From NCBI GenBank assembly GCA_029204225.1, contig CM055100.1, positions 4,529,737 to 4,593,736 of the forward strand: 64,000 nt of DNA, in the 5' to 3' direction. Under the pieces are notes generated by a model. It was not told where the DNA came from, made no database searches, and worked only from the letters and a program-made list of their open reading frames with translations. This document shows positions 2,276-52,013 of the stretch, one piece after another. How positions within the stretch are numbered: the stretch's first letter is position 1; every line of letters begins with the position of its first letter. The position numbers and the translations under genes were made by a program. This DNA comes from Diphasiastrum complanatum. Taxonomy: Eukaryota; Streptophyta; Lycopodiopsida; Lycopodiales; Lycopodiaceae.

Positions 2276-5200
2276 CTAAGAGTACAAACAATAAAAAATA
2301 GTCAGGGCACATGTCAAGGAGAGATAAAAAGATGGAGATTTAGCATGAATCAACAACTCTTCAACTCTATACCTTAAGGGTCACAAGCTAAACTAAGTTT
2401 GTCTATCTTCGATCATGTTATCCTTTTTTTTCACTTTGGAAAAACAAACAAACACATGAATTGCTTTGTACCTGCTTGCCCTACAAAAGCAATGCAATAA
2501 GAAAAACTAATATATATTGTTCTTCTTTCAACTGCCCACGTTTTTTTATAAGTTCCTCCAATTGATGCTAAAAGTAACAACAATTGAAAAACAATCATAG
2601 TACACCTCTCATGTTAAGCATGCATTAAAAGCAAAATACATTAAGATGTAGAGTTTAGGTCAATTGACCGTTCTTCAATTCTATAACTTAAAATTCACAA
2701 GCTAGACTACATGTTTTGTCTATCTTCAATCATGTTTTCCTTTTCTTTCACTTTGGAAAAATAAACAAACACAAAAATGGTTCGTGCCTTTTTGGCCCTA
2801 CAAAAGCAATATAATAAGAAAAAAACAAAATATGTTGCATTCTCAAGGTAGGTATCAACTTGATTCACAACCTACTTGGGGCCTTCTAGACAAGGTAGGG
2901 AACTCTAGCCCTTCCTTTGTATATCATTGTCAAATTAGGTATGCAGCCTAAGTTTAGTAGAGTGTAAACAGGAAATAGAGACATTCAATTGAAGCTTATG
3001 TTTTGGACTATTTGAGTCCTCTTTAAGAAGCTCATAGATCTTCCTAGTAGAAAATCAATTTTTCATTATGAGGGACACTCATGCGCACATGAGGCAAAGA
3101 TAGAGATTCGTTTAACTGGGTTAGAGGATCATGACCTATGTCATGGGCCACATAATACTCCAGATGAGACAAAGCATCAAGAGGAGGTAGAGAATCAAGA
3201 TATTCCATATCAAATAGAAAACTATTTAGATGAGCAACAGAGAACATTGTGTCATGAATTACAAGAGACTAGGGATGACATTTTGGCAAAAGATTTTCTA
3301 AATGCAATAGAAATTCCAAAGATATGCCATTTAACCACAAGTCCGGATTAGGCATGGATAGAGTCATCAGACAAGAACACATGCAGAGGATCATTTAGAT
3401 CTCCCCAACCGCTTCACAACTCAAAATCAAGTAAATTCATCTTTGAAGCACATAGGGTTTGTATATGAGCACCAGTGTTATGACCCTATAACTAGAGGCC
3501 ACCAACTCTAATGGAGCCGATAGAAGATGGTAAACACAATACAAGGCAAGACAGTGTACATAGTGTGAAAAATTGTCAACTAGTAGTATTTTCCTAACTT
3601 GAGATTTTGTAGGCCTATGGCCAAATAAAAGTTAGAGATAGGTTCATACATGTATGTAGAGGCCCAAAGTATGTGTACACTACTTTTGAGGTCACATTAA
3701 TTAGAGGAGGTCGAGTGTGGAGCTCTTCTATTGGCTCATAATTTGGTGCATTCCTATTTGACCAAATTTCTAGGTATATGGGTGAATCCTATTGGACCCC
3801 AATTTTAGCCTATCATAAGACAAGTGGCCAAGAGGCACTATGGCTGCTATAAATAGCCATCTCCACGAGTATGTACACATCTCATTTTCATTCTATTGAA
3901 TGAATGTTATGCTCTTTGAAGATCCATCTTCTTCTCTCTCACTTTTTTGTTCATATCTTGCATTCTAGCCACTAGAATTGTGATTTCTTTGTTGCTATGG
4001 CTTCACACGTGTGAAATGCAGGTTGTAGGCTCTGAAGTACGGACAGGGACAGCAAGTTTCTGTTTGTGGAAGCTTATGATCAGATTTTGATGTTTAGTTG
4101 ATGTTTAGTATGCTTAACATCACAATTTCTATCATTTTTTCAATCTAGATGTGCATAACTTCCATGGCCAAGATCTTTATGAAACTTTAGCATCTTTTGG
4201 ATCTGAGTTTTTCACATGGTATCAGAGCATTAGGCGGCCAAATGTGCAGGTTTTGCCAGATTTAGAAGAGATTTGTGGGCGAGTTTGCTTTTGTAGCATT
4301 CCAATCAAGTTTCTAGCTAAAAATCTTGTTGATTTATGTGTAGAAATTGGATCTTTGTGATCAAAACATCATTTGTATGCATTTCAATTGAAGTAGGGCG
4401 AATTCCCTCTATACTTATCAGAATAAGGAGACAAAAATTGTTTTGGAAAGAGGGAGATGCAAGATCCAACAAGATCCTATTAGTTTTCCATTCTAGCATA
4501 TAGTTTTTTGATTCAATTTCTTGCTTCTTCATGTCAAAAACTTCAAAATTGATGTAACCCTCTGATTTTCAGTTTGCTGAATGATTCAAGAGTGTATTTC
4601 AATCTTAGGAGTGAGGGAAAAGCAAGTATATTGAGGTTTGGTCTTGGTTTGATCAAGAAATCATAAAACTAGTGGCTAAAATTGAGAAAAAAGTGAGGAA
4701 AAGAGAGAAAAAGTAAGGTTTTAGGTTCCAAATCTTTGTGATTTCTTCTTGTGTTTCATTTGTTGATTCAAGAGAGTGCTTAGTGCATTGGAACAGGTCA
4801 AAGATCAGAGATCAATCATTGCAACATGGCTACAAATGGAGGCTACATGTTGGAAAGCAATGATAGGCTTACCTCCCTCAACTATTCTACTTGGAAAGTA
4901 AGGATGGAGTCTTTGCTTGAGATGAATGAGTTGATGGATATTGTTGTAGGTGTGGAGGAGAGACCTTTGGCACCTCAAGAACAATTGAGGTATGACAAGA
5001 GGGCAAAGAAAGCCCTTCACATGATCAAGATGAATGTGACAAATGAGCTTATCAAAGAGGTTGGTAAGTGCACATCATCTAGTGAAGCTTGGGAAGCCTT
5101 GAAGAAGGTTTATGAATCCAAGTCTACTTCTAGAGTGTTGACTTTAAGAAGGCAAATCTTTTCTTGTATGCAAAAGAAGAGTGAGAATGGACATGCTTTT

Positions 5201-8200
5201 GTTTTGAGAGTTAAAGCATTGAATGATGAGTTAGCATGCATTAATGATGGCATAAATAATGAGGAGCTTGTTCAAGTGATTCTCAATGGCTTGTTGGATG
5301 ATCATGCTAATCTTGTTCAAAGTTATGCTATCCAAAAATGTTTACCAAGTGTTGGAGACTTGCAAGAGGTCTTGTTGGCTGAAGAATTCAGGTTGCAAAC
5401 AAGAGTGGGAGCATCTTCTACATCTCAAGGAGGAGAAGAGGAGGCAATGTTCTCTAAAGGCAAGTTCAAGGGCAAAGGTAAAAGCAATTGGTCTAAAGGG
5501 CAAGACCAAGGTGAGCACTCTACTTTTGGCAAAAAGAAGGATAGATCTAAGCTAAAATGTTTCTATTGTGGAGTCAAAGGGCATTTTGCTAGTGATTGTT
5601 TTAAGAAAAAGAGGGATCAAGGGGAAAAGCAAACCAATCTAACTATTGATGAGGGTGGGGATGAGCTTCTTTCAAATGATGCTTTTGTTATGTCATCTTG
5701 CTTGTTGGCTAATCATGGAGACATTGATCCTTGGTGGATTGATAGTGGAGCCACTTCTCATATGACATATCATAAAGAGTATTTTTCATCTTTAATGGCA
5801 TTTGATGGTGATAGGAAGGTAATCTATACCGCAAATGATGGTGAGTGTGCAATCAAGGGGATTGGCACAATTCCTATTTCACTTTCTACAAATAGGAATA
5901 TAGAATTGAAAGATGTTTTGCTCATTCCATCCATTACCAAGAACTTACTTAGTGTAAGCCAAATGCTTGACAAAGGATTCAAAGTTGAGTTTGATGGTGA
6001 TGCTTGCTTGATCAAAAAGGGGTGTAGTATCATTGCAAAAGGGAAAAGGCAAGGGAAATTGTTCAAGCTTGATGCATGTGTTGTTGCTAACCAAGTTGGA
6101 TGCATGGCAAATGAACAAATGTCAATTCAAGAGGTATGGCATAAAAGGATGGGACATCTCAACTACAAGGCCTTGGAGGTAATAGCCAAAAAGGAGGTAG
6201 TAAGGGGACTTCCCAAGTCTCTTACTTGCTTGAATCATGTTTGTGAAGAATGTGCTTTGTCTAAATCACATAGATTGCCATATACTAGATCTATATCTAG
6301 ATCTAAGATGCCTTTTTCTCTCTTGCATTCGGATATTCATGGTGTTACTACAATTAGCAATGGAGGTGCTAAGATGTATGTAACTTTCATTGATGATTTT
6401 AGTAGATTTTGTTGGGTTTATCTACTAAAGAGCAAGGATGAGGTGTTTGATGTGTTTGTCAAGTTCAAAGTTGCTATTGAGACTCAATTTACAACCAAAA
6501 TCAAATGCTTGAGGAGCGACAATGGTGGTGAATACATTTCTAACAAATTCAAAGCCTTTTGCGATGAGCATGGGATCAAGAGGGAGTACACATGTCCAAG
6601 AACACCACAACAAAATGGAGTGGCCGAGAGGAAGAATAGAACCTTGTGTGAGAGTGCAAAGGCAATGAGATTGAATGCTAATCTTCCTAAACCTTTTTGG
6701 AGTGATGCTTTGTTGTGTGCAAATTTCCTATGCAATAGATGGCCAAGTGTTGTATTGGAAGGAAAAACCCCTTTTGAAGCTTTGTTTGGTACGAAGCCTA
6801 ATGTCAAGTTTCTAAGAACTTTTGGATGCATTTGCTACTTCAACATTACTCTTGATGATAGAACTAAGGAGGATCCATCTTCAAGAAAGGGCATTTTTGT
6901 TGGTTATAGTGAAGTAAGCAAAGCATATAGGATTTATGTTCCTTCAATCAAGAAAGTGTTCACAAGTAGGGATGTCATTTTTGATGAAAGTAACATTCCA
7001 AAAGTTGTTTCAAGTGATGATGGTGTTGTTGCAACTAATGTGCTTGATGACAATGGAGTTGATGACACATTGGATGTGGATGTTGAAGAAGCCTCTTCAA
7101 GTAAAATTCCAAGGAGAACTCCAAGGCATAAAGTGAAACCCTCAAGGCTCACTTATGATGGCAAAGGTAAGCAAGTGGTGGATGGATCCAACTATGCTTT
7201 CCTAACTTCTTTTGATGTACCTTCATGTGTAGATGAAGCAAGGCAAGAAGAGGAATGGATCCAAGCAATGGATCTTGAGTTTGAAGCACTTATGAAGAAC
7301 AACACATGGAGATTGGTGGAGCTTCCAAAGGGCAAAAGTGCAATTGGATGCAAATGGATCTTCAAGGTAAAGACAAATCAAGATGGATCTATCAACAAGT
7401 TCAAGGCAAGGTTGGTGGCTAAAGGTTATGCTCAAGAGCATGGCATTGACTATGAGGAAACCTTTGCACCCGTGGCAAAGATGGTGAGCATAAGAGTAAT
7501 CATTTCCCTTGCAACTCTTTATGGATGGGATCTTTGGCAATTAGACATTTCTAATGCTTTCTTGAATGGTGATCTTGAAGAGGAAGTCTACATGGAGCAA
7601 CCCGAGAGCTATGTTTCTCATAGCAAGCCTAATCATGTGTGTTTTCTACAAAAAAGTTTGTATGGTCTTAAGCAAGCACCAAGGAGTTGGTATGCTAGGC
7701 TTAACTCTTTTCTACTTTCTCAAAACTTCACTATGAGTGAGTATGATCATTCACTTTACTTTAGAATTAGTGCTAATGATGTTACAATCCTTATAATTTA
7801 TGTGGATGACATTATTTTAAGTGGAGGGAACAAGGAAGATATAGAAGATATCAAGAAAGCACTAAAAAAGGAATTTGAAGTGCATGATCTTGGTCTTTTG
7901 AGCTATATCTTAGGAATAGAAGTAATTAGAACTTCTCAAATCACTTTTATTTCACAAGAGAAGTATGCTATTTCTATTCTCAATAGATTTCATATGGTAG
8001 ATGCAAATCCTATTGATACACCTATGGAATCACATGTAAAGCTAACTATAAGAGGTAATGAAAGATCCTTCGAGGACATTACTCTCTATAGGAAGCTAAT
8101 AGGTTCTCTTATATATCTAACCATCACAAGACCTGATTTATCTTATTGTGTTGGTAGATTAAGCCAATTCATGCAAGATCCTAGCATAGAACATTGGAAA

Positions 8201-11200
8201 CTAGGAAAGAGGATCTTGAGATACATCTCGGGAACAAAAGATTTTGGCATTGTTTATAGAGGCTCATCACCTAACTTATTTGGTTTTTCAGATTCAGATT
8301 TTGCAGGAGACCTTATGGATAGAAAATCCATAAATGCACATGCTATTTTCATAGGTGATGGAGCTATCTCATGGATGTCGAAGAAACAAGCAACTATATC
8401 ACTTTCTTCTAGTGAGGCCGAGTACAAAGCTTTGACATCATGCACAAAGGAGATGGTGTGGATCAAGAGGATGATTATGGAGCTTCATTTGCTGGATTTT
8501 TCAGAGAGTCCAATCATCTTTTGTGACAACCTTTCAGCCCAAAGTCTAGCAAGCAATCCGGTTTTCCATGCAAGGAGCAAACATATCGAGGTGGCTTACC
8601 ATTTTGTGAGAGAACAAGTGTTGGCAAAAGAGATCAAGCTTGAACATGTCCCATCAAAGGAATGTGTGGCTGATATCTTTACCAAAGCATTGGGAAAGGA
8701 CTTATTTTTCAAGCATAGAACAAGTCTTGGTGTACTTTCTAAATCTATGCTAAAACTAGTTGAAGAGGGAGTGTGAAAAATTGTCAACTAGTAGTATTTT
8801 CCTAACTTGAGATTTTGTAGGCCTATGGCCAAATAAAAGTTAGAGATAGGTTCATACATGTATGTAGAGGCCCAAAGTATGTGTACACTACTTTTGAGGT
8901 CACATTAATTAGAGGAGGTCGAGTGTGGAGCTCTTCTATTGGCTCATAATTTGGTGCATTCCTATTTGACCAAATTTCTAGGTATATGGGTGAATCCTAT
9001 TGGACCCCAATTTTAGCCTATCATAAGACAAGTGGCCAAGAGGCACTATGGCTGCTATAAATAGCCATCTCCACGAGTATGTACACATCTCATTTTCATT
9101 CTATTGAATGAATGTTATGCTCTTTGAAGATCCATCTTCTTCTCTCTCACTTTTTTGTTCATATCTTGCATTCTAGCCACTAGAATTGTGATTTCTTTGT
9201 TGCTATGGCTTCACACGTGTGAAATGCAGGTTGTAGGCTCTGAAGTACGGACAGGGACAGCAAGTTTCTGTTTGTGGAAGCTTATGATCAGATTTTGATG
9301 TTTAGTTGATGTTTAGTATGCTTAACATCACAATTTCTATCATTTTTTCAATCTAGATGTGCATAACTTCCATGGCCAAGATCTTTATGAAACTTTAGCA
9401 TCTTTTGGATCTGAGTTTTTCACACATAGCTCCGTAGGCTCTTAACCCACTATTGGTCCATACCCTAGCATTAAGGCCTAACTTCAATGTAGGGCCCAAC
9501 AGCAAATAAGGCCCTAAGTTAGGTACTGACATGCAACTCAGTGATTAGGTGTCCTGTGAAATGGCAGTGGTGCCAATGCACATGGCACAGAGCATGCAAT
9601 GAGCTTATGCCAAGCTAGGTGGGGAATTCTCTATCATAAGAGAATGCAACGGCTAGGTGGATCAAAATAAAGCTAGCCCTACTCTGTTTCCAAGCTTCTA
9701 ACACTGGTATCAAAGCCACCTTGCCATTTTGTTTTTGAATTTAGAGAGAGAATTCTCAGTGCCCGCCGCCCTTCTTCCAGGCCATTTTTCTCTTCTTGCA
9801 TGTAGGTTTCTTTTGGAAAAAGATATGGAGGGATTGGGGGCACATTCTATTGGGGTTCCAGCGAACAGATTCAACAGCAGGAAGGCCACACTGTAGCCGG
9901 ATTACTTTGAAAAAAAATTGTAAAAGAGAACCACGCTAATCCATAACGCTCGGTAGGCAAGATTTCAACACATCCTATCCATCATTTTTGCAGCTAGAAC
10001 CCACACAGATCTAGTGTTCAGAAGGCAGGTCTCCAACACTATTTGCAAAGACATATGAGCTTCTTAGGAGAATTTTTCTGGCCTCGCATGATAAAGGACG
10101 TTTGTCATTATGTGGTTAGTTGCCATAAATGTCAAGTTAATAATGTAGAGCGTCTAAATGCGGGTGGGTTACTGCAACCTTTAGAAATACCAACTAGTAA
10201 GTGGGAGAGTACCTCCATGAATTTAATAGTAGGCCTGCCCAAGACCCAAAAAGATCATGACGTCATATGGGCCCTACTGGACCGTTGGACTCATTTTATC
10301 ATGACGTCATATGGCTCATTTTATCCTGACCAAAACAATCATCACAGCTCTAGAATTAGCAAGGTTATCTGCAGAATGGCTATTTAAACTTAACGGTCTT
10401 CCCTCCGGTAAGGTTAGTGACTGGGATAGTAAGTTAAATGCGGGACTTTGCATAGCAATATTCCATCGCCTCCATACTAAGCTTAATATGAGTATAGTTG
10501 ATCATCCTCAAACTAACGATCAAACAGAAAGAGTAAACCCAAGTGATGGAGGACATGCTAAAGCACAAGTTAGCAAGAAACAAACCAACTGGGAAGAATA
10601 TCTTCCTATATTGGAGTTTGCTTATAATAGTGCCAAACATGCAGCTACAGGATACATGCCATTTATATTGATGTATGGTTTTCAACCACGCTCACCCACA
10701 GCCAGAGGGTTTTAGCAAGAAGAGATTGAAGCAGCAAAACCCTTTTTAGAAGACCTAAACCAACAGGATGTTCAATTCTTCTTTGGTGAGTCTTCCTTCG
10801 AGTTCCAACTAATTCTAAAACTCTATAAACAGGAGTGTGTGCTAATCTCCTAGGTATTGTGGTCCGTTTACCATTATCAGGAGAATAGAAGTTACCTATG
10901 AACTAGAATCCCCAAACAATAGTAAGGCCCATCCAGTTTTTCATGTTAACTAGTTACAAAAAGCTTTAACCAGATCAAATAATCTAGTAGAGGACAACGT
11001 TCTAGTTAAGCCCTTGGAAACTCAACAAGTTCTTCAAGAACCAGAAAACCTTCTTGATTGAAGAGAGACTCAGACATGTCACACCTTATATCAAAACTAA
11101 TTTTGATAGAAAACTCCAATCGACAAGCTTGAAAGTGCAATGAGCTCATGTTCAAGTATGGAATATACAGGTCCGTAGGGTATTTGAAAAAAAATCTTGC

Positions 11201-36414: not shown

Positions 36415-37067
36415 TGTGAAAAACTCAGATCCAAAAGATGCTAAAGTTTCATAAAGATCTTGGCCATGGAAGTTATGCACATCTAGATTGAAAAAATGAT
36501 AGAAATTGTGATGTTAAGCATACTAAACATCAACTAAACATCAAAATCTGATCATAAGCTTCCACAAACAGAAACTTGCTGTCCCTGTCCGTACTTCAGA
36601 GCCTACAACCTGCATTTCACACGTGTGAAGCCATAGCAACAAAGAAATCACAATTCTAGTGGCTAGAATGCAAGATATGAACAAAAAAGTGAGAGAGAAG
36701 AAGATGGATCTTCAAAGAGCATAACATTCATTCAATAGAATGAAAATGAGATATGTACATACTCGTGGAGATGGCTATTTATAGCAGCCATAGTGCCTCT
36801 TGGCCACTTGTCTTATGATAGGCTAAAATTGGGGTCCAATAGGATTCACCCATATACCTAGAAATTTGGTCAAATAGGAATGCACCAAATTATGAGCCAA
36901 TAGAAGAGCTCCACACTCGACCTCCTCTAATTAATGTGACCTCAAAAGTAGTGTACACATACTTTGGGCCTCTACATACATGTATGAACCTATCTCTAAC
37001 TTTTATTTGGCCATAGGCCTACAAAATCTCAAGTTAGGAAAATACTACTAGTTGACAATTTTTCACA
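36415..37067 (-). repeat. Element 2, 3' LTR
   Basis: 653 bp, TGTGAAAAACTC...TTTTTCACA on plus. It carries the inverted TATA box within TTTATAGCAGCC and the CACACGTGTG palindrome. It abuts the stop codon of the polyprotein. Confidence 0.95.
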
Positions 37068-40000
37068 CTCCCTCTTCAACTAGTTTTAGCATAGATTTAG
37101 AAAGTACACCAAGACTTGTTCTATGCTTGAAAAATAAGTCCTTTCCCAATGCTTTGGTAAAGATATCAGCCACACATTCCTTTGATGGGACATGTTCAAG
37201 CTTGATCTCTTTTGCCAACACTTGTTCTCTCACAAAATGGTAAGCCACCTCGATATGTTTGCTCCTTGCATGGAAAACCGGATTGCTTGCTAGACTTTGA
37301 GCTGAAAGGTTGTCACAAAAGATGATTGGACTCTCTGAAAAATCCAGCAAATGAAGCTCCATAATCATCCTCTTGATCCACACCATCTCCTTTGTGCATG
37401 ATGTCAAAGCTTTGTACTCGGCCTCACTAGAAGAAAGTGATATAGTTGCTTGTTTCTTCGACATCCATGAGATAGCTCCATCACCTATGAAAATAGCATG
37501 TGCATTTATGGATTTTCTATCCATAAGGTCTCCTGCAAAATCTGAATCTGAAAAACCAAATAAGTTAGGTGATGAGCCTCTATAAACAATGCCAAAATCT
37601 TTTGTTCCCGAGATGTATCTCAAGATCCTCTTTCCTAGTTTCCAATGTTCTATGCTAGGATCTTGCATGAATTGGCTTAATCTACCAACACAATAAGATA
37701 AATCAGGTCTTGTGATGGTTAGATATATAAGAGAACCTATTAGCTTCCTATAGAGAGTAATGTCCTCGAAGGATCTTTCATTACCTCTTATAGTTAGCTT
37801 TACATGTGATTCCATAGGTGTATCAATAGGATTTGCATCTACCATATGAAATCTATTGAGAATAGAAATAGCATACTTCTCTTGTGAAATAAAAGTGATT
37901 TGAGAAGTTCTAATTACTTCTATTCCTAAGATATAGCTCAAAAGACCAAGATCATGCACTTCAAATTCCTTTTTTAGTGCTTTCTTGATATCTTCTATAT
38001 CTTCCTTGTTTCCTCCACTTAAAATAATGTCATCCACATAAATTAGAAGGATTGTAACATCATTAGCACTAATTCTAAAGTAAAGTGAATGATCATACTC
38101 ACTCATAGTGAAGTTTTGAGAAAGTAGAAAAGAGTTAAGCCTAGCATACCAACTCCTTGGTGCTTGCTTAAGACCATACAAACTTTTTTGTAGAAAACAC
38201 ACATGATTAGGCTTGCTATGAGAAACATAGCTCTCGGGTTGCTCCATGTAGACTTCCTCTTCAAGATCACCATTCAAGAAAGCATTAGAAATGTCTAATT
38301 GCCAAAGATCCCATCCATAAAGAGTTGCAAGGGAAATGATTACTCTTATGCTCACCATCTTTGCCACGGGTGCAAAGGTTTCCTCATAGTCAATGCCATG
38401 CTCTTGAGCATAACCTTTAGCCACCAACCTTGCCTTGAACTTGTTGATAGATCCATCTTGATTTGTCTTTACCTTGAAGATCCATTTGCATCCAATTGCA
38501 CTTTTGCCCTTTGGAAGCTCCACCAATCTCCATGTGTTGTTCTTCATAAGTGCTTCAAACTCAAGATCCATTGCTTGGATCCATTCCTCTTCTTGCCTTG
38601 CTTCATCTACACATGAAGGTACATCAAAAGAAGTTAGGAAAGCATAGTTGGATCCATCCACCACTTGCTTACCTTTGCCATCATAAGTGAGCCTTGAGGG
38701 TTTCACTTTATGCCTTGGAGTTCTCCTTGGAATTTGACTTGAAGAGGCTTCTTCAACATCCACATCCAATGTGTCATCAACTCCATTGTCATCAAGCACA
38801 TTAGTTGCAACAACACCATCATCACTTGAAACAACTTTTGGAATGTTACTTTCATCAAAAATGACATCCCTACTTGTGAACACTTTCTTGATTGAAGGAA
38901 CATAAATCCTATATGCTTTGCTTACTTCACTATAACCAACAAAAATGCCCTTTCTTGAAGATGGATCCTCCTTAGTTCTATCATCAAGAGTAATGTTGAA
39001 GTAGCAAATGCATCCAAAAGTTCTTAGAAACTTGACATTAGGCTTCGTACCAAACAAAGCTTCAAAAGGGGTTTTTCCTTCCAATACAACACTTGGCCAT
39101 CTATTGCAAAGGAAATTTGCACACAACAAAGCATCACTCCAAAAAGGTTTAGGAAGATTAGCATTCAATCTCATTGCCTTTGCACTCTCACACAAGGTTC
39201 TATTCTTCCTCTCGGCCACTCCATTTTGTTGTGGTGTTCTTGGACATGTGTACTCCCTCTTGATCCCATGCTCATCGCAAAAGGCTTTGAATTTGTTAGA
39301 AATGTATTCACCACCATTGTCGCTCCTCAAGCATTTGATTTTGGTTGTAAATTGAGTCTCAATAGCAACTTTGAACTTGACAAACACATCAAACACCTCA
39401 TCCTTGCTCTTTAGTAGATAAACCCAACAAAATCTACTAAAATCATCAATGAAAGTTACATACATCTTAGCACCTCCATTGCTAATTGTAGTAACACCAT
39501 GAATATCCGAATGCAAGAGAGAAAAAGGCATCTTAGATCTAGATATAGATCTAGTATATGGCAATCTATGTGATTTAGACAAAGCACATTCTTCACAAAC
39601 ATGATTCAAGCAAGTAAGAGACTTGGGAAGTCCCCTTACTACCTCCTTTTTGGCTATTACCTCCAAGGCCTTGTAGTTGAGATGTCCCATCCTTTTATGC
39701 CATACCTCTTGAATTGACATTTGTTCATTTGCCATGCATCCAACTTGGTTAGCAACAACACATGCATCAAGCTTGAACAATTTCCCTTGCCTTTTCCCTT
39801 TTGCAATGATACTACACCCCTTTTTGATCAAGCAAGCATCACCATCAAACTCAACTTTGAATCCTTTGTCAAGCATTTGGCTTACACTAAGTAAGTTCTT
39901 GGTAATGGATGGAATGAGCAAAACATCTTTCAATTCTATATTCCTATTTGTAGAAAGTGAAATAGGAATTGTGCCAATCCCCTTGATTGCACACTCACCA

Positions 40001-41013
40001 TCATTTGCGGTATAGATTACCTTCCTATCACCATCAAATGCCATTAAAGATGAAAAATACTCTTTATGATATGTCATATGAGAAGTGGCTCCACTATCAA
40101 TCCACCAAGGATCAATGTCTCCATGATTAGCCAACAAGCAAGATGACATAACAAAAGCATCATTTGAAAGAAGCTCATCCCCACCCTCATCAATAGTTAG
40201 ATTGGTTTGCTTTTCCCCTTGATCCCTCTTTTTCTTAAAACAATCACTAGCAAAATGCCCTTTGACTCCACAATAGAAACATTTTAGCTTAGATCTATCC
40301 TTCTTTTTGCCAAAAGTAGAGTGCTCACCTTGGTCTTGCCCTTTAGACCAATTGCTTTTACCTTTGCCCTTGAACTTGCCTTTAGAGAACATTGCCTCCT
40401 CTTCTCCTCCTTGAGATGTAGAAGATGCTCCCACTCTTGCTTGCAACCTGAATTCTTCAGCCAACAAGACCTCTTGCAAGTCTCCAACACTTGGTAAACA
40501 TTTTTGGATAGCATAACTTTGAACAAGATTAGCATGATCATCCAACAAGCCATTGAGAATCACTTGAACAAGCTCCTCATTATTTATGCCATCATTAATG
40601 CATGCTAACTCATCATTCAATGCTTTAACTCTCAAAACAAAAGCATGTCCATTCTCACTCTTCTTTTGCATACAAGAAAAGATTTGCCTTCTTAAAGTCA
40701 ACACTCTAGAAGTAGACTTGGATTCATAAACCTTCTTCAAGGCTTCCCAAGCTTCACTAGATGATGTGCACTTACCAACCTCTTTGATAAGCTCATTTGT
40801 CACATTCATCTTGATCATGTGAAGGGCTTTCTTTGCCCTCTTGTCATACCTCAATTGTTCTTGAGGTGCCAAAGGTCTCTCCTCCACACCTACAACAATA
40901 TCCATCAACTCATTCATCTCAAGCAAAGACTCCATCCTTACTTTCCAAGTAGAATAGTTGAGGGAGGTAAGCCTATCATTGCTTTCCAACATGTAGCCTC
41001 CATTTGTAGCCAT
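37063..41013 (-). CDS. Copia gag-pol polyprotein, element 2 (intact)
   Basis: 1316 codons, colinear with the element 1 protein and with the same residues at every catalytic site: CCHC at 245-258, protease D306-S-G-A, integrase D503/D565/E601, reverse transcriptase Y992-V-D-D, and RNase H D1156/E1197/D1234. The differences I see are A192 (T in element 1), Q760 (K) and L990 (I), the last two residues before YVDD. No stops or frameshifts. As in element 1 the stop codon falls within the first bases of the LTR. The start is the ATG at 41011-41013. With short, nearly identical LTRs and an open frame it is a candidate active copy. Confidence 0.96.
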   Translation of the reverse strand: MATNGGYMLESNDRLTSLNYSTWKVRMESLLEMNELMDIVVGVEERPLAPQEQLRYDKRAKKALHMIKMNVTNELIKEVGKCTSSSEAWEALKKVYESKSTSRVLTLRRQIFSCMQKKSENGHAFVLRVKALNDELACINDGINNEELVQVILNGLLDDHANLVQSYAIQKCLPSVGDLQEVLLAEEFRLQARVGASSTSQGGEEEAMFSKGKFKGKGKSNWSKGQDQGEHSTFGKKKDRSKLKCFYCGVKGHFASDCFKKKRDQGEKQTNLTIDEGGDELLSNDAFVMSSCLLANHGDIDPWWIDSGATSHMTYHKEYFSSLMAFDGDRKVIYTANDGECAIKGIGTIPISLSTNRNIELKDVLLIPSITKNLLSVSQMLDKGFKVEFDGDACLIKKGCSIIAKGKRQGKLFKLDACVVANQVGCMANEQMSIQEVWHKRMGHLNYKALEVIAKKEVVRGLPKSLTCLNHVCEECALSKSHRLPYTRSISRSKMPFSLLHSDIHGVTTISNGGAKMYVTFIDDFSRFCWVYLLKSKDEVFDVFVKFKVAIETQFTTKIKCLRSDNGGEYISNKFKAFCDEHGIKREYTCPRTPQQNGVAERKNRTLCESAKAMRLNANLPKPFWSDALLCANFLCNRWPSVVLEGKTPFEALFGTKPNVKFLRTFGCICYFNITLDDRTKEDPSSRKGIFVGYSEVSKAYRIYVPSIKKVFTSRDVIFDESNIPKVVSSDDGVVATNVLDDNGVDDTLDVDVEEASSSQIPRRTPRHKVKPSRLTYDGKGKQVVDGSNYAFLTSFDVPSCVDEARQEEEWIQAMDLEFEALMKNNTWRLVELPKGKSAIGCKWIFKVKTNQDGSINKFKARLVAKGYAQEHGIDYEETFAPVAKMVSIRVIISLATLYGWDLWQLDISNAFLNGDLEEEVYMEQPESYVSHSKPNHVCFLQKSLYGLKQAPRSWYARLNSFLLSQNFTMSEYDHSLYFRISANDVTILLIYVDDIILSGGNKEDIEDIKKALKKEFEVHDLGLLSYILGIEVIRTSQITFISQEKYAISILNRFHMVDANPIDTPMESHVKLTIRGNERSFEDITLYRKLIGSLIYLTITRPDLSYCVGRLSQFMQDPSIEHWKLGKRILRYISGTKDFGIVYRGSSPNLFGFSDSDFAGDLMDRKSINAHAIFIGDGAISWMSKKQATISLSSSEAEYKALTSCTKEMVWIKRMIMELHLLDFSESPIIFCDNLSAQSLASNPVFHARSKHIEVAYHFVREQVLAKEIKLEHVPSKECVADIFTKALGKDLFFKHRTSLGVLSKSMLKLVEEGV

Positions 41014-41610
41014 GTTGCAATGATTGATCTCTGATCTTTGACCTGTTCCAATGCACTAAGCACTCTCTTGAATCAACAAATGAAACACAAGAAGAAATCA
41101 CAAAGATTTGGAACCTAAAACCTTACTTTTTCTCTCTTTTCCTCACTTTTTCCTTAATTTTAGCCACTAGTTTTATGATTTCTTGATCAAACCAAGACCA
41201 AACCTCAATATACTTGCTTTTCCCTCACTCCTAAGATTGAAATACACTCTTGAATCATTCAGCAAACTGAAAATCAGAGGGTTACATCAATTTTGAAGTT
41301 TTTGACATGAAGAAGCAAGAAATTGAATCAAAAAACTATATGCTAGAATGGAAAACTAATAGGATCTTGTTGGATCTTGCATCTCCCTCTTTCCAAAACA
41401 ATTTTTGTCTCCTTATTCTGATAAGTACAGAGGGAATTCGCCCTACTTCAATTGAAATGCATACAAATGATGTTTTGATCACAAAGATCCAATTTCTACA
41501 CATAAATCAACAAGATTTTTAGCTAGAAACTTGATTGGAATGCTACAAAAGCAAACTCGCCCACAAATCTCTTCTAAATCTGGCAAAACCTGCACATTTG
41601 GCCGCCTAAT

Positions 41611-41622
41611 GCTCTGATACCA
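41611..41622 (-). other. Primer-binding site of copia element 2
   Basis: GCTCTGATACCA on plus, the reverse complement of TGGTATCAGAGC, directly abutting the 5' LTR at 41623. Confidence 0.9.
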
Positions 41623-42275
41623 TGTGAAAAACTCAGATCCAAAAGATGCTAAAGTTTCATAAAGATCTTGGCCATGGAAGTTATGCACATCTAGATTGAA
41701 AAAATGATAGAAATTGTGATGTTAAGCATACTAAACATCAACTAAACATCAAAATCTGATCATAAGCTTCCACAAACAGAAACTTGCTGTCCCTGTCCGT
41801 ACTTCAGAGCCTACAACCTGCATTTCACACGTGTGAAGCCATAGCAACAAAGAAATCACAATTCTAGTGGCTAGAATGCAAGATATGAACAAAAAAGTGA
41901 GAGAGAAGAAGATGGATTTTCAAAGAGCATAACATTCATTCAATAGAATGAAAATGAGATATGTACATACTCGTGGAGATGGCTATTTATAGCAGCCATA
42001 GTGCCTCTTGGCCACTTGTCTTATGATAGGCTAAAATTGGGGTCCAATAGGATTCACCCATATACCTAGAAATTTGGTCAAATAGGAATGCACCAAATTA
42101 TGAGCCAATAGAAGAGCTCCACACTCGACCTCCTCTAATTAATGTGACCTCAAAAGTAGTGTACACATACTTTGGGCCTCTACATACATGTATGAACCTA
42201 TCTCTAACTTTTATTTGGCCATAGGCCTACAAAATCTCAAGTTAGGAAAATACTACTAGTTGACAATTTTTCACA
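41623..42275 (-). repeat. Element 2, 5' LTR
   Basis: 653 bp, flanked at 42276 by the TSD CATTG. The LTRs of element 2 share at least one base that differs from both element 1 LTRs (ATGTACATATCTC against ATGTACACATCTC), so each element arose by its own insertion event. Confidence 0.95.
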
Positions 42276-42280
42276 CATTG

Positions 42281-50095: not shown

Positions 50096-51444
50096 ATACA
50101 TTCTCCTCAATATGTATAGTATGACCAATTGCTAAATACTTATCTTAAAGCTCTAGGTCCTTTATACAGTTTTAAGATGTCGAAGACTAATATAGGTCTT
50201 TCCCTTAGTAAATTAGATACCGGTGAATTAGAAAGTAGGGATAACATGTTAGGCGACAATGTGGGGGGGGGGTTGGGGGTCATTCAATATTGGATGGAGT
50301 TTTTTCAGACCCCAATTTTTATAGATGTCGCATTGTTTTCTCTACAATTCATGGATGCCTTTGATTTTCCTGATTTTTTTTTTCTTGGTGGGGTGTATTT
50401 GCTATAACTCAAACAAATATTACAAGGCTTATCCTACTTGACAACTGCTACAAAAAGTGAGGTTGGTTGAGTTGGCCAGAAACTGGAATCCAACTAGCCA
50501 CCTCCTGAAAACTTGCTTCCTTTAATACAATGATTGGGTTCATAGCCTTGAGCTGATTGGCTCTCATTACATGTGCTGCCATAGACTATCTCTCTCTTAC
50601 ATAGGGGGGCTCCCCCTTTCGGTCATACAAGGAAGATACAGGAACAAATGTTGCCAACATCCTAACCAAACAAACCCCAATACAGTCGGGTGGCTTGTGC
50701 TTAGAGCTCGATGATGATTGTGGTTCCTCTCCCTTACAGCGCTTAATCATATTCGTCATTCTAGTTGTTGCGATTGTTCTGAAGTGGCCGGGATGTCTGC
50801 CCACTTCCTTTTGGGGGGATTTCTACTTTCGTTAGTTGTAGACAGATCGTGGTTTGTAGTGTCTTCTGGCATCTGGCTTTGGACTCCCGGTTTCTGCTTG
50901 CAACGTTTGCCTCGAAACCAAGCATAGAGTAAGGACACAAAAAATTTGCAAACAAAAGGCGCTTAAAATCGATACCAAAATTGAATATCGATTTCGAATG
51001 TAGGTTTACACAACAAGAAAAAAAAAAAAAAACAAGGTTCGCGCTCGAAAGCGATATCGAAGATATCGCGGTATCAATCTCGAGCGCAGGGGGCGATGGT
51101 GAATACGAGAAGGCAAATAGACACGCTTGAGAGCGATATTGGGAGGAAACAAAAAAAAAATTTGTGATGAAAATTGAAAATTCCGTGGAGGTATTTATAA
51201 TTTTTTTTTGCACGTGTGAAAAACAGCCCGGGACACATGGCATCCCTTTGTCAATGATGAGAGTGTGTGTAATCCAATTTGTATAAAGATGAACTCTATT
51301 ACACACACCCACAAAATAGCGAGGAGCCATATCAAAAAAATACTGGAACTCTTTCCAGTACCAGGTGCAACAGCCTATACGATTCTCAAAATGATTGATG
51401 CACATGTAAAAATTTTAGAATATCGGTTCGACGCACGCGCTTTT
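50096..51444. other. No recognisable gene
   Basis: Contains a G-rich run (GTGGGGGGGGGTTGGGGG at 50261-50278) and a cluster of GCGATATCGA-type words near 51040-51080. A minus-strand frame at 50761-51405 is open but low-complexity and Ser/Phe-rich, with no recognisable content. It may be partly intron of the exon pair at 52014-52394. Confidence 0.35.
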
Positions 51445-51597
51445 TGTTAGAAAGTGTCAAGGCTATAACCCTTGCACAACACTCCTGGAACACAAATGGA
51501 CGGGTAGCTCAGTGGTAGAGCAGCCCACCGGAATGGGGGAGGTCCTAGGTTCAATCCCTAGCCCGACCACACACACCAAGTGTAAAAACTTTTCACA
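51445..51597 (+). repeat. TRIM LTR 1
   Basis: 153 bp, TGTTAGAAAGTG...AACTTTTCACA. It differs from LTR 2 at five single bases, mostly in the tRNA-like part (ACGGG/ATGGG, CAGTGG/CAATGG, GCAGCCC/GCACCCC, GCCCGAC/GCCTGAC) and once upstream (TATAACC/TATAGCC). Confidence 0.95.
51498..51569 (+). ncRNA. tRNA-like module in TRIM LTR 1
   Basis: A 72-nt cloverleaf can be drawn. The acceptor stem is GGACGGG with CCCGACC (6 of 7 pairs, one A-A mismatch), followed by a discriminator A. The D arm is GCTC/GAGC with loop AGTGGTA, an excellent A box (TAGCTCAGTGG). The anticodon stem is weak (GCCCA/GGGGG) with a 7-nt loop CCGGAAT that has C where U33 is expected. The variable loop has 5 nt. The T arm is a perfect CTAGG/CCTAG with loop TTCAATC, making the B box GGTTCAATCCC. 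It is best seen as a tRNA-derived pol III promoter module, not a working tRNA. Confidence 0.8.
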
Positions 51598-51669
51598 TGG
51601 TATCAGAGCCATGGTTGTGGGTGTGGTCTAGGCGGGCGGTAGCTAAAAGGGCTATGCCTTGAGGGGGAG
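51598..51669 (+). other. TRIM internal region: PBS and polypurine tract
   Basis: PBS TGGTATCAGAGCC (51598-51610) and purine tract GAGGGGGAG (51661-51669) almost fill the 72 bp. GGTGTGGTC within it can pair with GACCACAC at the end of the LTR 1 tRNA-like module, which could fold the transcript. Confidence 0.85.
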
Positions 51670-51822
51670 TGTTAGAAAGTGTCAAGGCTATAGCCCTTGC
51701 ACAACACTCCTGGAACACAAATGGATGGGTAGCTCAATGGTAGAGCACCCCACCGGAATGGGGGAGGTCCTAGGTTCAATCCCTAGCCTGACCACACACA
51801 CCAAGTGTAAAAACTTTTCACA
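51670..51822 (+). repeat. TRIM LTR 2
   Basis: 153 bp, directly followed by the TSD CTTTT. It contains the palindrome GGCTATAGCC near its start. Confidence 0.95.
51723..51794 (+). ncRNA. tRNA-like module in TRIM LTR 2
   Basis: The same 72-nt module, 225 bp downstream of the first. The A box (TAGCTCAATGG) and B box (GGTTCAATCCC) are kept, and the D and T stems are intact. The acceptor stem is weaker (GGATGGG with CCTGACC gives two G-T pairs and the A-A mismatch), while the anticodon stem is better (CCCCA/GGGGG). Confidence 0.78.
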
Positions 51823-52013
51823 CTTTTAGTGTTTGTAGATTTTCATTTCACATCATGTGCGCTAATCCAATATCTCATCAATATTTTTTTTATATCGGTT
51901 TGACGCGTGCTTGTTGCCTTTGTAGATTTTAATATCATCTCGTGCGTGTTGATTTGGTATTGCATAAATTTAGGATTTTGTTACTAACTTTTGTATATAT
52001 CTGAATACTGCAG

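What the first reader, a model, noticed from the sequence alone, without database searches (positions are those of the whole stretch)
51445..51822. TRIM whose LTRs carry a tRNA-like pol III promoter module
Seen directly: two 153-bp LTRs, PBS, polypurine tract, 72-bp interior and perfect TSD CTTTT, so this is a bona fide retrotransposed miniature element. Each LTR contains a 72-nt cloverleaf with an A box (TAGCTCAGTGG) and B box (GGTTCAATCCC). Established: plant Cassandra TRIMs carry 5S rRNA-like LTRs with pol III promoters, and SINEs carry tRNA heads. I do not recall a TRIM with a tRNA-like LTR, so this could be a parallel capture of a pol III promoter. Inference: the element may be transcribed by pol III, which would be unusual for an LTR element because pol III starts near the A box and stops at T-runs.
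Basis: partly seen in the sequence, partly recalled or inferred. Interest (0 to 1): 0.92.

Follow-up and report, generated by a model that had tools for sequence, protein, structure and literature searches.

The report
Mini retrotransposon with tRNA-like promoter
The window holds a 378-base, gene-free retrotransposon whose two ends each carry a tRNA-like stretch that probably serves as its promoter; elements of this kind (called Helenus) were described in 2024, so this is a new family of a known kind, with a second such family in the same genome.

Summary
At 51445-51822 lies a TRIM: two 153-bp LTRs (5 mismatches), 72-bp interior, PBS, polypurine tract, TSD CTTTT. Each LTR carries a tRNA-like stretch (Rfam RF00005, 49.9 and 52.4 bits) with A and B boxes. 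The host genome holds many copies (667 matches to a 33-base U3 pattern); of 29 independent complete or tandem copies, 16 have perfect 5-bp TSDs. 40 of 40 LTRs at 20 loci score as tRNA. The novelty claim fails: Kojima (2024, PMC10886601) described TRIMs with tRNA-like LTRs, 'Helenus', in fungi, animals and one plant. New here: a second family (144-bp LTRs) in the same genome, whose module is about 81% identical while the LTR ends are not recognisably related; and at least 10 of 62 independent loci where this TRIM is joined to another retrotransposon at the LTR/PBS boundary. These point to mobilisation by Copia machinery and to the module being the conserved part. Pol III transcription is likely but unshown: family A has a plant-like TATA-CAA-A-B-TTTT layout, family B lacks TATA and TTTT. 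Host species and parent tRNA were not identified.

The parts
51440..51444 (.). left target site duplication CTTTT
51445..51597 (+). 5' LTR (153 bp)
51464..51467 (+). TATA motif, -34 to -31 from the tRNA-like start (family A layout)
   Evidence: position read
51493..51495 (+). CAA motif at -5 to -3, candidate pol III start site
   Evidence: rule for plant tRNA genes from PMC11700998
51498..51569 (+). tRNA-like stretch, LTR1 (RF00005, 49.9 bits)
51505..51515 (+). A box TAGCTCAGTGG
51548..51558 (+). B box GGTTCAATCCC
51590..51593 (+). TTTT, candidate pol III terminator in LTR1 (must be read through for a full-length RNA)
51598..51669 (+). 72-bp interior, too short for any retrotransposon gene
51598..51610 (+). 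primer binding site TGGTATCAGAGCC (complementary to initiator tRNA-Met: recalled)
51661..51669 (+). polypurine tract GAGGGGGAG
51670..51822 (+). 3' LTR (153 bp)
51723..51794 (+). tRNA-like stretch, LTR2 (RF00005, 52.4 bits)
51815..51818 (+). TTTT in LTR2, candidate 3' end of a full-length pol III RNA
51823..51827 (.). right target site duplication CTTTT

Best explanation
A Helenus-type TRIM (non-autonomous LTR retrotransposon, TRIMp3 class). SHOWN: two LTRs, PBS, PPT, 5-bp TSDs, many dispersed copies, tandem arrays, and a tRNA-like module with A and B boxes in nearly all sampled LTRs. INFERRED: the internal boxes recruit TFIIIC and RNA polymerase III; transcription starts near 51494 in the 5' LTR; part of the RNA stops at TTTT 51590-51593 (about 100 nt) and part reads through to TTTT 51815-51818 (about 325 nt, with about 100 nt repeated at both ends). 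The long RNA is packaged and copied by the reverse transcriptase of Copia elements that use the same PBS, and is inserted by Copia integrase. The tRNA-like stretch is a promoter relic, not a working tRNA.
For: Anatomy. Family: the 378-bp query gives 43 matches with only 40 of 796 candidates scored; 460 matches to a 24-mer around the B box at up to 2 mismatches and 667 to a U3 33-mer at up to 3, reversed-pattern controls 0 both times. Perfect 5-bp TSD in 16 of 29 independent loci. RF00005 in 40 of 40 LTRs at 20 of those 29 loci, no other hit at gathering score in 67.6 kb. 23 of 23 LTR starts at 20 places that I picked from the 100 U3 matches listed still carry at least part of the module, judged by eye. 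At sites outside CG/CHG, diversity between 24 elements exceeds LTR-pair divergence in U3 (0.039 vs 0.018) but not in the tRNA-like part (0.0173 vs 0.0167); fewer changes per column in the tRNA-like part than in the rest of the LTR, permutation p 0.015, 57 LTRs. Second family B: module 58/72 identical to A, 0 of 300 letter shuffles as good; LTR ends no better than shuffles; RF00005 at gathering score in 21 of 22 near-full-length family-B LTRs looked at. TATA+CAA+TTTT all present in both window LTRs and in 67 of 91 nonredundant LTRs, against 0.19% of random window places (the three signs and their ranges were chosen after reading the LTR). Copia link: at least 10 of 62 independent loci join the TRIM to a foreign PBS or foreign LTR at the LTR/PBS boundary, two with Copia gag-like sequence downstream of the TRIM LTR (L042, L052).
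Against: No transcript data. Family B has no run of four T anywhere and no TATA, so a terminator inside the LTR is not a general rule of these elements. In family A the same TTTT must be passed in LTR1 and used in LTR2. No helix change on both sides among 28 family-A LTRs, one between A and B; the fold is no better than shuffles. The conservation signal in the tRNA-like part is modest and rests on few U3 columns; the last 28 bases of the LTR are as even as the tRNA-like part (0.0192 vs 0.0194). Counting all sites, the tRNA-like part is not more conserved: its twelve CG/CHG sites decay quickly. Some copies have lost a box by deletion (L041, L078, L085). 13 of 29 loci lack a perfect TSD. The CAA near the start is missing in 13 of 91 LTRs. 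The joints could arise by genomic recombination rather than during reverse transcription.
Confidence: 0.72

Rival explanations
1. Same TRIM, but transcribed by pol II from U3 like ordinary TRIMs; the tRNA-like stretch is a passive passenger left by a SINE or tRNA insertion.
For: U3 has a nearly invariant CTATAG inside a palindrome; no RNA evidence for pol III; family B lacks a T-run; fold not stable.
Against: Between families A and B the module, with perhaps some 25 bases upstream of it, is the only LTR part still alignable; in family A the module gains no source-copy changes outside methylation-prone sites; CAA sits within 10 bases upstream in both families.
Confidence: 0.22
2. A tRNA gene or pseudogene pair duplicated in tandem, with LTR features by chance.
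For: Rfam and ARAGORN both call tRNA.
Against: PBS, PPT, TSD and dispersed copies with the same termini. ARAGORN on 91 nonredundant LTRs: 67 called, 65 of them without an isotype, 24 with no gene.
Confidence: 0.01
3. A SINE that inserted into an LTR once, still moved by a LINE.
For: SINE heads carry such boxes; SINE-into-LTR is Kojima's proposed origin.
Against: Copies end at LTR termini with 5-bp TSDs (16 of 29), not at a SINE tail; 23 of 23 U3-selected LTR starts carry at least part of the module.
Confidence: 0.03

Closest known systems
Helenus (Kojima 2024, Biology 13:119, PMC10886601)
   Same: TRIM under 1 kb; tRNA-like stretch with box A TRGCY...YGG and box B GGTTC in both LTRs; PBS and PPT; 5-bp TSD as in fungal and plant Helenus; Copia link as in fungal Helenus; not expected to make a working tRNA.
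   Different: LTR/interior lengths 153/72 (A) and 144/116 (B) against 120/85 for the one plant family, Helenus-1_SMo; the genome (1.74 Gb) is far larger than that of S. moellendorffii (recalled). Sequence comparison with the published consensus set was not possible (supplements closed).
Cassandra (TRIM with 5S rRNA-like LTR)
   Same: pol III promoter module inside the LTR; tandem arrays (PMC7215508, passages).
   Different: No 5S match at gathering score in the window; the module is tRNA-like.
Ordinary plant TRIMs (Katydid, SMART and others; Gao 2016, PMC4717578, passages only)
   Same: size class and tandem arrays; PBS and PPT (general knowledge).
   Different: the word tRNA has 0 occurrences in that paper's main text.
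tRNA-headed SINEs
   Same: A and B boxes of tRNA type.
   Different: LTRs, PBS, PPT and integrase-type 5-bp TSD instead of a LINE-derived tail.

Membership tests
Helenus | TRIM: two LTRs, PBS and PPT, under 1000 bp, no protein genes | tested here: met
   378 bp with a 72-bp interior
Helenus | tRNA-derived sequence in the LTRs | tested here: met
   RF00005 in both LTRs and in 40 of 40 LTRs at 20 loci
Helenus | box A TRGCY and YGG, box B GGTTC | tested here: met
   TAGCT..TGG and GGTTC; motifs
Helenus | 5-bp TSD (plant and fungal families) | tested here: met
   window CTTTT; 16 of 29 independent loci perfect
Helenus | tRNA-like part not a plausible working tRNA | tested here: met
   ARAGORN gives no isotype for 65 of 67 calls and no gene in 24 of 91 LTRs; C where the universal U33 is expected (my reading; U33 rule recalled). 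tRNAscan-SE, used in the paper, was not available
Helenus | sequence relation to a published Helenus consensus | not tested
TRIMp3 | transcription by RNA polymerase III | not testable with these tools
   no RNA data; layout is indirect
Cassandra | 5S rRNA-like sequence in the LTR | tested here: not met
   no 5S rRNA hit at gathering score in the window, none up to E 1 in 51430-51840
SINE | no LTRs; LINE-type tail and TSD | tested here: not met
   LTRs, PBS, PPT, 5-bp TSD
functional tRNA gene | consistent anticodon, isotype and stable cloverleaf | tested here: not met

The most novel reading that the evidence does not exclude
The tRNA-like promoter is a module that stays, or moves, between otherwise unrelated mini-retrotransposons in one genome, and the exact LTR/PBS joints with several Copia elements and between the two TRIM families are fossils of shared reverse transcription: a pol III-made RNA hitch-hiking in particles of pol II-made Copia elements.
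Probability: 0.3. Interest if true: 0.6.

Novelty: new member of a known kind. Interest (0 to 1): 0.4.

Why it matters
Only one plant species, Selaginella moellendorffii, is listed with Helenus in the 2024 paper. Two abundant families in another, larger genome widen the range, suggest that the tRNA-like module outlives the LTR ends, and offer physical joints to Copia elements. The joints bear on the open question of which autonomous elements mobilise pol III-type TRIMs. Such copies would also inflate tRNA gene counts in this genome, as reported for rust fungi.

Tried and rejected
Partner by shared ends: the window's own Copia (5.9 kb, two near-identical copies) shares 20 bp of LTR end plus PBS with the TRIM, and Copia M shares 20 and 18 bp at the PBS and PPT sides, but these matches are short and general for Copia, so no single partner is claimed. 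Cloverleaf by covariation within family A: no two-sided change in 28 LTRs. Host identity: genome searches for PF01824 and PF00016 did not complete, and the homologous-protein query could not be made because the shared database is switched off. A lycophyte (Diphasiastrum, n=23) came to mind from the contig sizes only; it is recall, a paper search on it (listing only) settled nothing, and it is not claimed. That the host is a plant is inferred from CHG-type decay and the Copia PBS.

Corrections to my notes: entry 6 says 19 family-B tRNA hits; the table gives 21. Entry 3 counts L029 among the joints; the script does not list it and it is not in the count of 10. In the conservation test, the first version included loci picked by a 24-mer inside the tRNA-like part, which biases it; one search uses only loci picked by whole-element similarity. 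The first form of this report said that families A and B are unrelated outside the module; the alignment also pairs 17 of the 23 bases just upstream, so this was narrowed to the LTR ends.

Full report
OBSERVATION. Two 153-bp direct repeats (148/153 identical) flank a 72-bp interior; the LTRs run TGTTAG...CACA, CTTTT lies on both sides, a PBS TGGTATCAGAGCC follows LTR1 and GAGGGGGAG precedes LTR2. Rfam finds a full-length tRNA match in each LTR (49.9 and 52.4 bits) and nothing else at gathering score in 64 kb. ARAGORN agrees but assigns no isotype. The anticodon arm is odd: CCCCA/TGGGG with a 6-base loop in LTR2, or a 7-base loop with C at position 33, and the acceptor stem has an A-A mismatch (my reading). 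The predicted RNA fold is not more stable than shuffles.

FAMILY. The host genome is held (1.74 Gb, 5176 contigs). The 378-bp query gave 43 matches with only 40 of 796 candidates scored. A 24-mer around the B box has 460 matches at up to 2 mismatches and a U3 33-mer has 667 at up to 3; the reversed-pattern controls are 0. The 40 loci behind the 43 matches reduce to 29 after removing segmental duplicates with shared flanks. The window's copy has three near-identical duplicates with the same TSD (L001, L003, L004), so those are not independent. Perfect 5-bp TSDs flank 16 of the 29. Of the other 13, four are joined to other repeats on one side (L008, L015, L019, L029), two are arrays (L031, L035), three lack a few end bases (L016, L025, L034), one has 4 of 5 bases (L040), and three I cannot explain (L006, L020, L032). 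LTR pairs of 24 elements differ by 2 to 8 bases, mean 2.8%.

IS THE MODULE A FAMILY TRAIT? Yes, in nearly all copies seen. RF00005 is found in 40 of 40 LTRs at 20 of the 29 loci (the other nine were not given to it). Of 91 nonredundant full LTRs from 90 loci, 55 have a perfect A box and 74 a perfect B box; these 91 include loci chosen by a B-box pattern, so the B-box figure is biased upward. Twenty further places that I picked from the 100 listed U3 matches, at places where the B-box search had listed none, gave 23 LTR starts; all still carry at least part of the module by eye, some truncated or rearranged, and several are near-duplicates of each other. Copies that lost a box by deletion exist (L041, L078, L085). 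So no LTR that never had the module was met, in a small sample out of 667.

CONSTRAINT. All 12 CG/CHG-context sites of the LTR lie in the tRNA-like part and many have decayed, as expected of methylated plant DNA; over all sites that part is therefore not more conserved (0.0246 changes per site and LTR, against 0.0218 in U3). At other sites, differences between elements are twice those between the two LTRs of one element in U3 (0.039 vs 0.018), but equal in the tRNA-like part (0.0173 vs 0.0167) and in the last 28 bases (0.0192 vs 0.0194). So the source copies changed in U3 and not in the module. Changes per column are fewer in the tRNA-like part than in the rest of the LTR (0.48 vs 1.11 in 57 LTRs, permutation p 0.015; all). 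This is modest evidence and rests on few U3 columns. Among 28 family-A LTRs no pair of the cloverleaf changed on both sides.

SECOND FAMILY. At L065 a family-A LTR is followed by the interior and LTR of another TRIM with a tRNA-like LTR; this LTR scores 28.4 bits, just under the gathering score of 29. A search with it gave 47 matches, only 40 of 1387 candidates scored, with several pairs spaced 260 bases. A complete copy (L113) has 144-bp LTRs and a 116-bp interior. In 13 loci, 21 of 21 near-full-length family-B LTRs score as tRNA, 38.3-52.8 bits, so 21 of 22 with L065; an LTR of L122 and a piece in L074 have lost the module by deletion or truncation. Of the seven family-B loci printed for this, one (L114) shows a perfect 5-bp TSD, GAGCC. 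Families A and B share 58 of 72 module positions (0 of 300 letter shuffles as good). The parts before (50 of 300) and after it (287 of 300) are no better than shuffles by local score, though a gapped alignment pairs 17 of the 23 bases just upstream of the module and 12 of the first 30, and blastn extends its match upstream of the module. The interiors share a 25-base stretch that reads like a PBS region (0 of 300). One stem pair changed on both sides between A and B. Either the module was kept while the LTR ends diverged, or the same kind of tRNA-like sequence was taken up twice.

HOW IT MAY WORK. In family A the module lies in a layout known from plant tRNA genes (PMC11700998, passages): TATA at -34, CAA at -5, A and B boxes, and TTTT 21 bases downstream. 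All three outer signs occur in both window LTRs, in 67 of 91 nonredundant LTRs, and in 0.19% of random window places (ranges chosen after seeing the LTR). The only runs of four T in the element are those at the two LTR ends. A pol III RNA would start near 51494 and end either at 51593 (about 100 nt) or, after read-through, at 51818 (about 325 nt), with about 100 nt repeated at both ends: enough for the first strand transfer. Family B has CAA at -6 but neither TATA nor TTTT, so its RNA would have to end in flanking DNA, or another polymerase is at work. These steps are inference.

COPIA LINK. Besides the 5-bp TSD and PBS, at least 10 of 62 independent loci (deduplicated by hand from the 21 rows; 62) show the TRIM joined to something else at the LTR/PBS boundary: L008, L019 (inverted), L042, L052, L065 (A to B), L066, L069, L073, L082 and L087. 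I dropped L055-L057 (own truncated LTR) and L084 (no LTR-like end). In L042 and L052 a Copia gag-like stretch lies downstream of a TRIM LTR. In L066 the foreign LTR is of an abundant Copia family, M (2825 candidates, 40 scored), and in L073 of a relative of M (76-83% to it). For L069, L082 and L087 the foreign LTR was not classified. Such joints fit template switching during reverse transcription, proposed for Cassandra arrays (PMC7215508, passages), but genomic recombination is not excluded.

PRIOR ART. Kojima 2024 (PMC10886601; parts 1-5 of 6 of the text, figure legends and tables) named TRIMs with tRNA-like LTRs Helenus and grouped them with Cassandra and Ajax as TRIMp3; the only plant listed is Selaginella moellendorffii (LTR 120, interior 85, TSD 5). 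In the held library 'Helenus' with 'retrotransposon' occurs in two papers (the second is a meeting report, passages), and 'TRIMp3' in four, of which by their titles only Kojima's uses it in this sense. Further searches showed 20 of 51, 20 of 260, 15 of 19 and 10 of 48 papers; among those listed I saw no other report of a plant TRIM with a tRNA-like LTR, going by titles and abstract openings. Most subscription journals are not held. The element meets every Helenus feature I could test; sequence relation to published consensus sequences was not tested.

VERDICT. Real, and more interesting in its surroundings than first thought, but a new member of a known kind.

Noticed in passing
window 3562-9424 (+) and 36415-42276 (-): Two 99.8% identical, inverted copies of a 5.9-kb Copia element with 655-bp LTRs and one open 1330-aa ORF (gag, integrase and RT domains found in the first copy).
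   Followed up: partly
L001, L003, L004 (L002 is the window's own copy): The window's TRIM with 600 flanking bases is present three more times at 99.7-100% with the same TSD, twice on the same chromosome within 0.5 Mb and once on a small contig: recent segmental duplication or assembly redundancy.
   Followed up: partly
L113-L124, L065:1675-1831: Second tRNA-like TRIM family (B), abundant and with many copies of the same score, so perhaps the younger one.
   Followed up: partly
L072, L080, L031, L035: Tandem LTR-interior arrays of family A, about ten LTR pieces in L072.
   Followed up: no
L008, L029: TRIM LTR joined to TGGTATCA and then what looks like the start of a Copia LTR, in both orientations; could be an LTR-LTR joint that kept part of the primer tRNA copy.
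   Followed up: no
window 51458-51474 and 51647-51661: A near-perfect palindrome (CAAGGCTATAGCCCTTG in most copies) in U3 is nearly invariant in 28 aligned LTRs, and a similar stretch recurs inverted in the interior next to the PPT; function unknown.
   Followed up: no
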